Shown piece after piece: positions 8,324 through 22,904 of a stretch of DNA of 46,874 nucleotides. Within the stretch, counting starts at the first letter, position 1, and each line of letters begins with the position of its first letter. The DNA comes from a bacterium. GTDB taxonomy: Bacteria > Patescibacteriota > Patescibacteriia > SG8-24. The DNA lies in the NCBI GenBank assembly GCA_023246195.1, contig JAHFIW010000005.1:1-46874 (forward strand), given 5' to 3'. A program made the translations under genes and the position numbers. The notes beneath the pieces are model-generated. The model did no database searches and was not told the DNA's origin. It worked only from the letters and a program-made list of their open reading frames with translations.

Positions 8324-8575
8324 TTATGCTTGGGGCACGATGATTGTGGCGAGCGCCACGCAGAGGAAGATGAAGGCGAAGAGGATCGTGGCGCGGAAGA
8401 GCACCTTTTCGACGCCGCGCTTGGTGCGATAGACGTTGCCTTCGCCGCCGAAGGTGTTGCCGAGACCCGTGCCGCGCGATTGCAGCAGGATGGCGATCAT
8501 CAGGAGTATCGAGATGACGATCTGGGCGACGGTGAGGTTGGTCTTCGTGAAAATGCTTGCAAACATGTGTTTCAT
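8324..8575 (-). CDS. secG: Preprotein translocase subunit SecG
   Basis: 83 residues with two membrane helices (residues ~16-33 and ~60-80) separated by the SecG-typical loop SRGTGLGNTFGGEGNVYRTK. SecG assists SecYEG-mediated export. The ATG at 8575 is preceded by AAGGGGG at good spacing, and a minus-strand promoter lies at 8650-8678. Length and topology match the family. It is first in a probable operon with the binding-protein gene. Confidence 0.93.
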   Translation of the reverse strand: MKHMFASIFTKTNLTVAQIVISILLMIAILLQSRGTGLGNTFGGEGNVYRTKRGVEKVLFRATILFAFIFLCVALATIIVPQA

Positions 8576-8678: not shown

Positions 8679-8695
8679 CGGTTTGGCGTAACTTC

Positions 8696-8704
8696 TGATA
8701 TACT
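8696..8704 (+). promoter_or_regulatory. Extended -10 promoter of the DsbA-like gene (leaderless)
   Basis: TGATATACT (TGn plus TATACT) ends six bases before the ATG at 8711, so transcription should start at or next to the start codon. No good -35 is seen at the usual distance. Confidence 0.55.
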
Positions 8705-8710
8705 GTGCCC

Positions 8711-9472
8711 ATGCCTACCTACGATCTGGATATTACTAAGCCGCAACGGGCGGAAAAAAAAGGTGGTTGGGGTTGTGCCTTCGGCGGCTGGGCCGTCTTT
8801 TTGCTTGTCGCGGCCGCGGCACTGTTCATCGGCTATCGCGTCTGGTTCTATTATCAGAAGATCAAGACGGGACAACTGGTGGATCTCCCGCAGTTTGAGA
8901 ACCGTCTTACCTCCGTCAGTAACGGCGGAGCCGCGGCCTCCGCTGCTTCATCGGCGCGGACTGACGTGGAGTTGGACACCGCTGCTTCGCAAGGTCCTGC
9001 TGACGCAAAACTGGTAGTGGTCGAGTTCGCCGACTTCCAGTGCCCCTACTCCAAAGAAGAGGCCCTCGTGGTACGGTCGCTGATGCAAAAGTACGGCGAC
9101 AAGGTCCGCTTTGAATATCGCGATTACCCGCTAAGTGAGATTCATCCCTACGCCATGCAATCCGCAGTGGCAGCACGCTGCGCGCAGGAACAGGGAAAGT
9201 TCTGGGCCTATCACGACAAGCTGTTCGTCAATCAGCCGTCGCTCTCCGACCAGATGCTCACTCAATACGCCGCCGAGGTCGGCATGGACACCAAGCAGTT
9301 CGAGCATTGCTTCACGAGCCAGCTCTACAGGCCGAAGGTCGAGGCTGACCGGGCCACGGCGCAGCGCCTGGGAATCACGGGCACTCCCACCTTCTTCTTC
9401 AACGGCAGTCGGGTGGATGGAGCGGTGCCGATCGACGTTTTCGAGAACTTGATTCAGAAAATGATTAAATAG
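8711..9472 (+). CDS. Membrane-anchored DsbA-like thioredoxin-fold protein with CPYS active site
   Basis: 253 residues from the ATG at 8711; a GTG two codons upstream is less likely because the -10 box places transcription start at the ATG. A cytosolic N-terminus, one membrane helix (~residues 22-46), a linker, then a DsbA/Thioredoxin_4 domain with VEFADFQCPYSKEEA and the cis-proline motif GITGTPTFFFNG. The usual CxxC is CPYS (C111, S114), so the resolving cysteine is missing. Two further cysteines (AARCAQ, EHCFTS) might substitute. Extracytoplasmic disulfide exchange is the family role. The next gene, four bases downstream, encodes a protein with about 50 cysteines, a likely substrate. Confidence 0.88.
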   Translation: MPTYDLDITKPQRAEKKGGWGCAFGGWAVFLLVAAAALFIGYRVWFYYQKIKTGQLVDLPQFENRLTSVSNGGAAASAASSARTDVELDTAASQGPADAKLVVVEFADFQCPYSKEEALVVRSLMQKYGDKVRFEYRDYPLSEIHPYAMQSAVAARCAQEQGKFWAYHDKLFVNQPSLSDQMLTQYAAEVGMDTKQFEHCFTSQLYRPKVEADRATAQRLGITGTPTFFFNGSRVDGAVPIDVFENLIQKMIK

Positions 9473-9476
9473 GGCT

Positions 9477-11198
9477 ATGAAACTGGTCGGCAATCTCAAC
9501 TTCCGCAGCAGACCGGCACTTCTCGGCGCCTTCGTGGCTTGGCAGCTCGCGGTCGCTTTTGCGGCCTTTGCGCCGGCGTTCATCGCTGCCCCCGCTCAGG
9601 CGCAAAAGCCGGTCACGTGCTTCATGAGGGGGGAGTGCATCGATTCCAAGACGCGGGGCAATTGCGACAATCAGCATTGTTTTGAGGTGCGAAAGGAGTG
9701 CCCTCCCGGTCAGGGCCTCTGTTATGCCAACCCGCCCGCAGTTCCTCTGACCATTTCCATCGGCGGTCATACGGTTGCGCTCGACATGAGCGATTACATC
9801 ATCATCGTTTTCAACTACGGCGTGGGCGTTGCCGGCCTGATTGCGACGGTGATGTTCATGGTCGGCGGTTTTCAGTACCTCACGGCCGGCACTTCCGACC
9901 GTACCAGCAAGGGAAAGGAACGTATCAAGAACGCCATCGTCGGCATGCTGTTGGTTTTTGGGGCGATGCTCATTCTGCGTACCGTCAATCCGGACACCCT
10001 CAAGTTGCAGATGCCAAAAATCGAGATTACCAAACGCAGTACTGTCGCTAGTTGCGCCTATACGGAAATGTGCGAGCCGTGCGGCGTTCCGTACGTCGTG
10101 CTTACCGACAAGGCGACGGGTGACACGGCAAAGGCAATGGGCCAGTGCAATTTTGCCAAGCTCCGTTCGGAGGTCGCAGAGGCCGATTTGTCCAAATATG
10201 ACTTGTCACAGTGCGTCGGCATGGGCTGTAGCGGTTCTGGAGCCGGGATGATCCCGTACTCCTCTGATGACAAGGCAAAATGCAGCAGCTACCTTTTCCG
10301 CTGCAATCACGCCGACGCGAACGACACCTTTCAGTGCGGCCACGTTCCGACGCCGCCGAAAGACGCGCCCCCTTCACCCGCAGGAACATCGGGCGGTTAT
10401 GTCTGCAAGTCCTGTCTTCCGGACGGTGCGACGTGCGCGGCATCGGGAAAGAACGACAGTTGCTGCGGAGGCTTCTGTTCCGGCTCTGGCGTGGGGCTTA
10501 ATACTTGTGCCTCCGGACAGCCGGGAGACGCGTGTCAGGACGACAAGCAGTGCATTACCGGCAAGTGCCAGACCAATTGGGGTAACAGTTGCAGTGCCGG
10601 TGAAATCGGTTCGCCGTGCGGCGGCACTGATGCCGGCAGCGAGTGCAAGACCGGATACAAGTGCAGCACCTTCCTGTCGAATACGTGCTCGCCGGGGACG
10701 AAGTACAGTTATTGCGACGAGGATTCGGAGTGCCAGTCTCCGTTGCGCTGCGTGAAGCTCACCGGCTACGCGCACGTGTGCATGGATGTTCCCGACGACA
10801 GGGACAAATTCAAGGCCGTCGTCTGTCCGATACAGGACGGCGTAGTGTATGACACGTGCTGCCGCAACAACGCGGACTGTGCCAGTAGGGGCGGTTTCTG
10901 CAATACCATGGAGTCCCATTTCTGTACCGACGGTTCTCCGGGTGCGCCCTGTGACAGTCCGACTGAATGTGCCAGCGGTTTCTGCAGCGTCCATACCTGT
11001 ACCACCGGCGTAATCGGTTCTGCGTGCGATGATGACAACGGTTGCGCAAGTCATCATTGCTCCAAGGCGGGGGACTTCAAAGTGTGCACGTCCGGAGGCA
11101 TTGGTGCGCGCTGCGATGACGTTAACGACTGCAATGACAAGAACGTCATGGTTTGCGAGCAGCATCGTTGCGGCCCAAAGGGGGACGCCACGCAATAA
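9477..11198 (+). CDS. VirB2-like pilin core fused to a long cysteine-rich repeat tail
   Basis: 573 residues. A signal peptide (Ala-rich, possible cleavage after AQAQ near residue 43) and a short Cys-containing segment lead to two membrane helices (~107-135 and ~148-170). Around them are SDYIIIVFNYGVGVAG, FMVGGFQYLTAG and KNAIVGMLLVFGA, the pattern of type IV secretion pilins (TrbC/VirB2, T4SS_pilin) common in CPR bacteria. The remaining ~400 residues hold about 46 of roughly 52 cysteines; in the last ~190 residues they fall in about eight four-Cys units such as GSACDDDNGCASHHC and GAPCDSPTECASGFC, reminiscent of EGF- or Dickkopf-like modules. It follows the DsbA-like gene by four bases, so coupled expression and oxidative folding are likely. 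Surface location is inferred; function is unknown. Confidence 0.82.
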   Translation: MKLVGNLNFRSRPALLGAFVAWQLAVAFAAFAPAFIAAPAQAQKPVTCFMRGECIDSKTRGNCDNQHCFEVRKECPPGQGLCYANPPAVPLTISIGGHTVALDMSDYIIIVFNYGVGVAGLIATVMFMVGGFQYLTAGTSDRTSKGKERIKNAIVGMLLVFGAMLILRTVNPDTLKLQMPKIEITKRSTVASCAYTEMCEPCGVPYVVLTDKATGDTAKAMGQCNFAKLRSEVAEADLSKYDLSQCVGMGCSGSGAGMIPYSSDDKAKCSSYLFRCNHADANDTFQCGHVPTPPKDAPPSPAGTSGGYVCKSCLPDGATCAASGKNDSCCGGFCSGSGVGLNTCASGQPGDACQDDKQCITGKCQTNWGNSCSAGEIGSPCGGTDAGSECKTGYKCSTFLSNTCSPGTKYSYCDEDSECQSPLRCVKLTGYAHVCMDVPDDRDKFKAVVCPIQDGVVYDTCCRNNADCASRGGFCNTMESHFCTDGSPGAPCDSPTECASGFCSVHTCTTGVIGSACDDDNGCASHHCSKAGDFKVCTSGGIGARCDDVNDCNDKNVMVCEQHRCGPKGDATQ

Positions 11199-11230: not shown

Positions 11231-11260
11231 AAAAAACGCCGCCTCACTGCGGCGTTTTTC
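11231..11260 (+). terminator. Intrinsic terminator after pilin gene
   Basis: Stem CGCCGC/GCGGCG with loop CTCACT, extended by A:T pairs, followed by TTTTT. Confidence 0.9.
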
Positions 11261-11339: not shown

Positions 11340-11423
11340 CGATAACAGTTTTGTTCGGTCGCGGTCGCTAGGCCGAGATCGTCGTGCCCATTTTTACCTT
11401 GGTTCACATTGACGGACAGCACC

Positions 11424-14396
<2,973 letters not shown>

Positions 14397-21458: not shown

Positions 21459-22904
21459 ATGCAAAGCAATCGTTCCATCGGTGGCAGTGTGGCGGCCTCT
21501 CTTCTGTTTTTGGCCTCATTCGCCGTGGCCGCGAACGTTTTTGCGGCGAGCGGTTCCGTCACGGGACCTGCCGGAAAGAACGTCGTGGTTTGGCAGTGGA
21601 GCGACATCGCCAAGGCGCCAACCGACATTCGGAGTTTCCCGCCGTTCGACAATGGGGTCGGTGCAGGTTCCATTGCCGTGCACGACCTCGGCAGCGACGG
21701 CGTAGGCGAGATCGTGGTCGGTTCCGGGTTTGGCGTGCCGTCTTCGGTGCGCATCCTTCGCGCTGACGGTTCCAAGATTCTGGAGTTCGCGCCGTTCGAC
21801 AAGACCATGCTGCAAGGCGTGAACGTGGCCGTCGGAGATTTGGACGGCGACGGCAAGGCGGAGATCGCCGTCGGCACCGGTCCCGGCGCGGACGCGCGCG
21901 TGCGCGTCTTCGACGGCATGGGCAAGGAAAAAATCTTTCCGGGCGGACTGACGCCTTTCGCCGCCGACTTTCGAGGCGGAGTAAATGTGGCCATTGCCGA
22001 TCTCGACGGCGACGGCAAGTCCGAACTCATCACTTCGGCCGGCCCTACCGGAGGGCCGGAAGTGAAGATTTGGAACGGCGCCGGTTCGCTGCTCGGTGAT
22101 TTTTTCGCCTTCGACAATGCCCAGTCGCAGGGTCTTCACATTGCCGTCGGTGATCTCGACGGCGACGGCAAGGCGGAGATCGTCGCCGCGCTGGAAACGA
22201 ATTCTTTGGCGTATGTCCGCGTATTTTCGGGAACGAACGGCACTAAGGTGGGCGAGTTCATGTCCATCGGCGGCGGTTTCACCGGAGGACTCAATTTGAC
22301 GGTAGGTGATGTGAACGGCGACGGCAGGGCGGAGATTCTGGTTGTGCCGAACGGAGAAGGGGGTCCGAACGTTTTTGCCTACGACATGAAAGGCGATCCG
22401 CTCGGAAACTTTTTTGCCTACGATAAATCGTATCGTGGCGGCGTCCTGCTCGCCATTGGCAGGCTTGGAGGCAAAAAGCCGTCGCTCATCACCGTGCCCG
22501 CCGAACGCGCCATCGACGGTCGTCCGCAGTTCGCCAAGTACGTGACAGTCAGCGTGTCGGAGCAGCGTCTGCGCGCCTTCGAGTACGGCAAGCTGGTAAA
22601 GACCTTTCTTGTGGCCACCGGCATGAAGAAATATCCAAGCCCCATCGGCGACTTTTCCGTTTTGGACAAGCCGTTCAAGGTCAATTACAAGTGGAACTAC
22701 GGTTCGGGCAATCCCGATAATTACGATCTCGGTTGGGTTACCTGGAACCTGCGGTTTGCGCCGCACACTTACATCCACTACGCTCCGTGGCGCAAGGTGT
22801 TCGGCGTGCGCGGCAGCCACGGTTGCGTCAACGTCAACAAGACCGACGCCGAATGGATTTATGGCTGGGGTCAGGTGGGCATGCCCGTGACCGTGCAGCC
22901 GTAA
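21459..22904 (+). CDS. Secreted FG-GAP repeat protein with L,D-transpeptidase (YkuD) domain
   Basis: 481 residues. A signal peptide (AASLLFLASFAVAANVFAAS) precedes about six FG-GAP/VCBS-type blades with the calcium-loop motif VGDLDGDGKAEI (residues ~60-345), then a YkuD domain (~365-481). The catalytic signature GSHGCVNVN lies near residue 453, preceded by the conserved His in YIHYAPW. YkuD enzymes form 3-3 peptidoglycan crosslinks or attach proteins to the wall. Fusion to an integrin-like propeller suggests positioning at a glycan or protein ligand. Active-site residues appear intact. It is a single-gene unit with a leaderless-type promoter and a strong terminator. Confidence 0.93.
   Translation: MQSNRSIGGSVAASLLFLASFAVAANVFAASGSVTGPAGKNVVVWQWSDIAKAPTDIRSFPPFDNGVGAGSIAVHDLGSDGVGEIVVGSGFGVPSSVRILRADGSKILEFAPFDKTMLQGVNVAVGDLDGDGKAEIAVGTGPGADARVRVFDGMGKEKIFPGGLTPFAADFRGGVNVAIADLDGDGKSELITSAGPTGGPEVKIWNGAGSLLGDFFAFDNAQSQGLHIAVGDLDGDGKAEIVAALETNSLAYVRVFSGTNGTKVGEFMSIGGGFTGGLNLTVGDVNGDGRAEILVVPNGEGGPNVFAYDMKGDPLGNFFAYDKSYRGGVLLAIGRLGGKKPSLITVPAERAIDGRPQFAKYVTVSVSEQRLRAFEYGKLVKTFLVATGMKKYPSPIGDFSVLDKPFKVNYKWNYGSGNPDNYDLGWVTWNLRFAPHTYIHYAPWRKVFGVRGSHGCVNVNKTDAEWIYGWGQVGMPVTVQP

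What the first reader, a model, noticed from the sequence alone, without database searches (positions are those of the whole stretch)
8711..11198. DsbA-like protein paired with a pilin-like protein carrying ~50 cysteines
Four bases separate a membrane-anchored thioredoxin-fold protein from a VirB2-like two-helix pilin core fused to ~400 extracellular residues, most of the cysteines in about eight four-Cys units. A disulfide-stabilised surface appendage with a dedicated folding partner would be a new type of CPR surface system, perhaps for host attachment or DNA uptake. Seen: gene order, Cys repeats, helices. Known: T4SS-pilin cores and DsbA folds. Inferred: substrate relationship and appendage.
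Basis: partly seen in the sequence, partly recalled or inferred. Interest (0 to 1): 0.75.

Follow-up and report, generated by a model that had tools for sequence, protein, structure and literature searches.

The report
Disulfide-folding enzyme paired with cysteine-rich pilin
An ultra-small bacterium of the candidate phyla radiation carries a two-gene unit, shared across its whole class, that pairs a disulfide-handling enzyme with a pilin-like surface protein holding 52 cysteines, which suggests a dedicated way of building tough, disulfide-locked surface structures, probably for contact with other cells.

Summary
A membrane-anchored DsbA-like protein (8705-9472) is followed after four bases by a 573-residue protein (9477-11198) with a T4SS_pilin core and 52 cysteines, none of them in the two-helix core. 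Both genes occur in all ten genomes of the family (Ca. Uhrbacteria), and DsbA lies upstream in at least 34 of 49 informative genomes elsewhere in the class.

Three results support disulfide bonding: the mature cysteine number is even in 54 of 58 relatives (9 of 9 in a later set); the C-terminal half is predicted as regular small cystine units; and cysteine-poor pilin loci almost never carry a DsbA.

Two new points emerged. The DsbA often lacks the resolving cysteine (CXXS/T in 24 of 42 pairs), which fits an isomerase or client-trapping chaperone better than an oxidase. A second locus pairs a CXXC DsbA with pilin cores fused to peptidoglycan hydrolases; pilins of this type lie 5-13 kb from a VirB4-like gene in the five same-contig cases found.

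An MdbA-like enzyme folding pilins was already proposed for CPR; the dedicated operon and its client appear undescribed in the papers searched. Polymerisation and host attachment are inferred, not shown.

The parts
8705..9472 (+). DsbA/MdbA-like thioredoxin-fold protein, membrane-anchored, 255 aa (alternative start ATG at 8711)
   Evidence: PF13462 3.7e-29, PF01323 2.2e-24; profile of nine orthologues matches PDB 3gyk 1e-27 and DsbA 4pwo 3.1e-23; present in 10/10 family genomes
9041..9052 (+). DsbA active site Cys113-Pro-Tyr-Ser116 (CXXS; resolving cysteine missing)
   Evidence: Catalytic Cys invariant, fourth position Ser/Thr in 24 of 42 DsbAs paired with Cys-rich pilins
9477..11198 (+). Cys-rich protein with T4SS-pilin core, 573 aa, 52 Cys
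   Evidence: orthologues in 10/10 family genomes
9618..9722 (+). N-terminal six-Cys segment (residues 48-82), after a probable signal peptide and before the hairpin
   Evidence: even number of Cys on this side in most relatives
9810..9980 (+). T4SS_pilin (VirB2-like) two-helix core, residues 112-168; no cysteine
   Evidence: PF18895 2.4e-8; predicted helices 104-136 and 140-169; zero Cys here in all relatives measured
10404..10508 (+). CC-type unit, residues 310-344; residues 313-344 have knottin-like spacing C-x6-C-x8-CC-x3-C-x9-C
   Evidence: spacings; profile match to a knottin trypsin inhibitor, PDB 4aoq, E 0.0029; conserved in 9 of 10 orthologues
10533..11171 (+). Seven four-Cys units, residues 353-565 (C-x5-C-x4-C-x7-C type)
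   Evidence: spacings; AF2 model of residues 307-573 mean pLDDT 80.4, pTM 0.76, with one small hairpin module per unit
11232..11259 (+). Intrinsic-terminator-like hairpin just after the pilin gene, closing a two-gene unit
   Evidence: 11-bp stem followed by a T-rich tail; the number of such sites in the region is no more than chance, so this is supportive only
8324..8575 (-). secG, divergent neighbour (context only)
   Evidence: PF03840 1.6e-13
11409..14396 (+). uvrA, conserved downstream neighbour (context only)
   Evidence: translation; a gene of the same size, about 985-1080 aa, follows the pair in most of the family genomes

Best explanation
The two genes are a dedicated oxidative-folding pair. 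The pilin-like protein is exported by Sec. Its VirB2-type helical hairpin sits in the membrane, and its N-terminal six-Cys piece and ~400-residue C-terminal part are outside. The 52 cysteines form up to 26 disulfides and make a stiff, protease-resistant rod of small cystine units (strongly supported, not directly shown). The neighbouring membrane-anchored DsbA holds the nascent protein through mixed disulfides at its single active-site cysteine and shuffles wrong disulfides (inferred from CXXS). Net oxidation is supplied by other CXXC DsbAs of the cell and, where present, VKOR (inferred). The finished protein is a surface ligand that uses the pilin core to dock on or join the cell's T4SS filament as a minor or tip subunit, and so helps contact with another cell (the least certain step).
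For: Pairing: 10/10 family genomes from 9 genera, with the same neighbours in most; DsbA directly upstream in at least 34 of 49 informative class genomes plus 4 nearby, and 8 of 9 in a later set. Specificity: DsbA is near 14 of 17 long Cys-rich pilins but 1 of 32 other pilin loci (p 1.4e-8). Disulfides: even mature Cys number in 45/49, then 9/9 in loci fetched later, against 7/16 in control ORFs; no Cys in the hairpin; regular units with a confident C-terminal model. Enzyme: catalytic Cys, Thr-Pro loop and the Cys159/Cys202 pair invariant, resembling M. tuberculosis DsbA with its second disulfide (PMC3792642); CXXS/T in 24 of 42. Oxidant: VKOR in the own genome. T4SS: VirB4-like gene in 10/10 family genomes, PrgI in the own genome; the core is 52% identical to the locus-B cores, and locus-B-type pilins lie 5-13 kb from the VirB4-like gene in five genomes.
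Against: The Cys-rich pair itself lies 65-105 kb from the VirB4-like gene in the four genomes measured, so its T4SS link is indirect. VKOR was found in only 6 of 10 family genomes. CXXS is not universal among pairs, and on the tree it is concentrated in one clade, so its association with pairing is not phylogenetically independent. A ~400-residue tail is bulky for a VirB2-type filament. The N-terminal part of the full-length model is of low confidence. No experimental data were found for any member.
Confidence: 0.6

Rival explanations
1. Anchor-only model: the pilin-like hairpin is just a two-helix membrane anchor that this lineage reuses to display extracellular domains (cystine rod, hydrolases, giant Ig-like proteins). 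DsbA folds the rod, but nothing polymerises and no T4SS is involved.
For: The same core is fused to very different domains: a Cys-rich rod, glucosaminidase, M15, SLT and M23 domains, and >3300-residue TIG/Big_5 proteins. Large tails are hard to fit in a VirB2 filament.
Against: The core is recognised as T4SS pilin over the cut-off; locus-B-type pilins lie 5-13 kb from the VirB4-like gene in all five same-contig cases found.
Confidence: 0.3
2. General housekeeping: the DsbA serves many exported proteins of the cell, and the pilin gene is merely its usual neighbour.
For: This genome exports other Cys-rich proteins, such as the giant on contig C47 with 184 Cys in the part read. MdbA is reported to catalyse oxidative folding of exported proteins in general (PMC9974433 abstract).
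Against: The own genome has two further DsbAs, both CXXC. The paired enzyme is mostly monothiol, unsuited to general oxidation, and pairing follows the Cys content of the pilin.
Confidence: 0.2
3. Metal or redox protein: the cysteines bind metal or act as an extracellular redox buffer rather than forming structural disulfides.
For: High Cys density alone would allow it.
Against: Even-number parity, Dickkopf/knottin-like spacing, a predicted extracellular place and a DsbA neighbour all point to disulfides.
Confidence: 0.04

Closest known systems
MdbA/VKOR oxidative folding of pilins in Actinobacteria (Actinomyces oris, Corynebacterium diphtheriae)
   Same: A membrane-bound DsbA-like enzyme acts on exported pilins, with VKOR as re-oxidant (PMC5478893); the profile of this DsbA also matches solved DsbA structures 4pwo and 7unn
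   Different: MdbA uses CXXC and serves sortase-assembled pilins; here the partner is a T4SS-type pilin core with 52 Cys, its gene is adjacent, and the active site is CXXS
CPR fam000318, MdbA-like oxidoreductase (PMC6744442)
   Same: Probably the same broad enzyme family, already proposed in 2019 to fold CPR pilins
   Different: That proposal concerned type IV pilins and reported CxxC in 89% of members; the passages read do not mention the Cys-rich T4SS-pilin neighbour or a CXXS subset
VirB2-like pilins of the Patescibacteria T4SS, PF18895 (PMC12102498)
   Same: Same pilin core; a VirB4-like gene is present in the same genomes
   Different: Described there as small pilins, often in arrays; the passages read mention no long Cys-rich C-terminal domain, no DsbA and no hydrolase fusion
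Monothiol PDI-family proteins ERp44 and TMX5 (CRFS)
   Same: A single active-site cysteine traps clients in mixed disulfides (PMC11443168)
   Different: Eukaryotic ER proteins; the resemblance is in the active-site logic only
Dickkopf / colipase / knottin cystine modules
   Same: Spacing and small hairpin units; PF04706 3.1e-7 in one orthologue; Dkk1 top of the fold search (E 0.3); knottin inhibitor E 0.0029
   Different: No match of the window protein itself to these families; structural matches are not significant

Membership tests
T4SS_pilin (PF18895) | Match to the family profile over its curated cut-off | tested here: met
   34.4 bits against 26.6
T4SS_pilin (PF18895) | Two-helix hairpin | tested here: met
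   helices 104-136 and 140-169, though at moderate confidence
VirB2 major pilin of a T4SS | Small pilin without a large extra domain | tested here: not met
   573 aa with a ~400-residue Cys-rich tail
VirB2 major pilin of a T4SS | Gene next to virB4 | tested here: not met
   65-105 kb away in the four relatives measured; on different contigs in the own genome
VirB2 major pilin of a T4SS | Polymerises into a filament | not testable with these tools
   needs microscopy or biochemistry
DsbA/MdbA thiol oxidoreductases | Thioredoxin fold with inserted helical domain | tested here: met
   PF13462, PF01323 over cut-off; DsbA structures matched by sequence
DsbA/MdbA thiol oxidoreductases | CXXC active site | tested here: not met
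   CPYS in the window; CXXS/T in 24 of 42 paired relatives
DsbA/MdbA thiol oxidoreductases | Conserved cis-Pro loop (Thr-Pro) | tested here: met
   T227 P228 invariant in nine orthologues; cis geometry not seen
DsbA/MdbA thiol oxidoreductases | Disulfide oxidase activity | not testable with these tools
   needs an enzyme assay
Dickkopf_N (PF04706) | Match to the family profile | tested here: inconclusive
   window protein: none; one of ten orthologues 3.1e-7

The most novel reading that the evidence does not exclude
Paceibacteria-class CPR use the VirB2-type pilin core as an interchangeable docking module of their T4SS. One DsbA-linked locus near virB4 supplies pilin-fused peptidoglycan hydrolases that replace VirB1, and a second, with a monothiol DsbA chaperone, supplies a disulfide-locked Cys-rich adhesin that replaces the VirB5/PrgB-type contact protein.
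Probability: 0.3. Interest if true: 0.85.

Novelty: new variant of a known kind. Interest (0 to 1): 0.62.

Why it matters
How CPR bacteria attach to and act on host cells is largely unknown, and few genes give a clear handle. A class-wide operon that couples a pilin-type surface protein to its own disulfide chaperone names a specific, probably surface-exposed candidate and makes testable predictions (all cysteines paired, DsbA-dependent folding). The monothiol form would be a bacterial counterpart of eukaryotic client-trapping PDIs. The hydrolase fusions offer a possible answer to the reported lack of VirB1 in most Patescibacteria with VirB2-like pilins (PMC12102498).

Tried and rejected
Fold search of the full-length model against the PDB gave nothing (best E 2.7); of the C-terminal model, only insignificant Dickkopf/knottin-like matches. 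Disulfide connectivity could not be read because models come without coordinates. Sigma-70 promoter scanning found nothing above chance. The Fisher test for CXXS against pairing (p 1.5e-4) is not taken at face value because CXXS is concentrated in one clade; the tree gave too few independent pairs. Literature searches for cysteine-rich pilins or DsbA in Patescibacteria found no direct description, but the library lacks subscription journals and preprints. The DNA-uptake idea was dropped for lack of any evidence. A metal-binding role was considered and rejected on parity, spacing and location.

Full report
What is there. The window holds a 255-aa protein with one N-terminal membrane helix and a DsbA-like thioredoxin domain (8705-9472) and, four bases after its stop, a 573-aa protein (9477-11198) whose residues 112-168 match T4SS_pilin PF18895 over the curated cut-off. 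The second protein has 52 cysteines: six between the probable signal peptide and the helical hairpin, 46 after the hairpin, none within it. The Cys fraction is ten times that of the rest of the window (p 4e-34). A terminator-like hairpin lies at 11232-11259, although the count of such sites in the region is not above chance. Neighbours are secG and an SBP_bac_5 gene on the other strand and uvrA downstream (by its translation).

Conservation. The own genome (1.17 Mb, 98% complete) and the nine others held from the family all have both genes. They are directly adjacent in nine; in the tenth, G006, a contig end cuts the DsbA. The pair sits between a gene of about 600-730 aa on the other strand and a uvrA-sized gene in most of them. 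Contigs of identical length in genome contigs name the family as Candidatus Uhrbacteria. Across 286 genomes of the class, the pilin profile matches 202 and the DsbA profile 260. Among genomes outside the family where both lists are informative, DsbA lies within 1.2 kb upstream on the same strand in 34 of 49, and within 4 kb in four more. Nine loci fetched afterwards gave 8 of 9. In a phylum-wide sample, strong matches (E up to 1e-30) were all from this class. Among 49 loci from named genomes, DsbA is near 14 of 17 long Cys-rich pilins and 1 of 32 other pilin loci (p 1.4e-8), so the DsbA follows the cysteines, not the pilin core.

Disulfides. If every extracellular cysteine is paired within the protein, the mature number must be even. 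It is even in 45 of 49 relatives and in 9 of 9 fetched later, against 7 of 16 control ORFs. Relatedness inflates the combined p value (3e-12), but the later set covers several families. AF2 on the C-terminal 267 residues gives mean pLDDT 80 and pTM 0.76, with the same small helix-and-hairpin motif in each four-Cys unit. Sequence profiles point to Dickkopf_N in one orthologue (3.1e-7) and to a knottin inhibitor for the first unit (E 0.0029); fold matches to Dickkopf 1 head the list but are not significant. The exact connectivity is unknown.

The enzyme. In nine orthologues the catalytic Cys113, the Thr-Pro loop and Cys159/Cys202 are invariant. The latter two resemble the second disulfide of M. 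tuberculosis DsbA (PMC3792642). The fourth active-site position is Ser or Thr in 24 of 42 DsbAs paired with Cys-rich pilins, but Cys in 13 of 14 unpaired ones and in all four paired with low-Cys pilins. On a tree the state changes at least 11 times, mostly within one weakly supported group in which 37 of 42 rows are paired. So the resolving cysteine is repeatedly dispensable there, but the link to pairing is not statistically independent. By analogy with CRFS proteins that trap clients in mixed disulfides (PMC11443168), the likely role is isomerase or client-holding chaperone; net oxidation would come from other CXXC DsbAs (two more in this genome) and VKOR (own genome yes, 6 of 10 in the family).

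Link to a secretion system. VirB4-like genes occur in 10 of 10 family genomes and PrgI in the own genome. A second locus in this family pairs a CXXC DsbA with pilin-core proteins that are fused to peptidoglycan hydrolases: glucosaminidase and M15 here, SLT and M23 in other genera. Pilins of this locus-B type lie 5-13 kb from the VirB4-like gene in all five genomes where both were found on one contig. The window protein's core is 52% identical to the locus-B cores of its own genome and only 24-31% to the other pilin-like genes there. The Cys-rich pair itself is 65-105 kb from the VirB4-like gene in four relatives. A role with the T4SS is therefore plausible but indirect.

What is known. The CPR T4SS survey describes VirB2-like PF18895 pilins and arrays and notes that most genomes with VirB2 lack VirB1; a search of that text for 'disulfide' and 'dsb' found nothing, and its one use of 'cysteine' concerns a VirB1 domain (PMC12102498). 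An MdbA-like oxidoreductase enriched in CPR was proposed to fold type IV pilins (PMC6744442). In Actinomyces, MdbA and VKOR fold sortase pilins (PMC5478893). The dedicated operon, its Cys-rich client, the CXXS subset and the hydrolase fusions were not found in the papers searched.

Verdict. Shown: the gene pair, its class-wide conservation, its dependence on Cys content, parity and repeat regularity. Strongly inferred: an extracellular, fully disulfide-bonded protein with a dedicated partner. Weakly inferred: isomerase or trap mechanism, docking to the T4SS, host contact.

Noticed in passing
L009 5794-8008 (own genome contig C11); L056, L051, L079: A second locus has a CXXC DsbA followed by T4SS-pilin cores fused to peptidoglycan hydrolases that differ between genera (glucosaminidase, M15, SLT, M23); pilins of this type lie 5-13 kb from the VirB4-like gene in five genomes. 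They may replace VirB1.
   Followed up: partly
L011 9016-19001 (own genome contig C47): A protein of more than 3300 residues with a T4SS-pilin core, TIG and Big_5 domains and at least 184 cysteines, next to a 783-residue protein with the same core.
   Followed up: no
L010 10473-12515 (own genome contig C33): An array of at least four short pilin-like genes next to two genes for extracellular solute-binding-like lipoproteins; one of the pilin-like genes carries nine cysteines.
   Followed up: no
L046 5107-6549 (G003): The orthologue in this genus has lost most Cys units and carries an alanine-rich, probably helical tail instead.
   Followed up: no
L189 (G012): DsbA with CPYS, a solute-binding-protein-like gene and uvrA are kept here without a Cys-rich pilin in the fetched stretch.
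   Followed up: partly
window 21459-22904: A protein with FG-GAP repeats and an L,D-transpeptidase (YkuD) domain.
   Followed up: no
window 8680-8715: A TATACT box lies about 8 bases before the ATG at 8711, so the dsbA message may be leaderless; seen by eye only.
   Followed up: no
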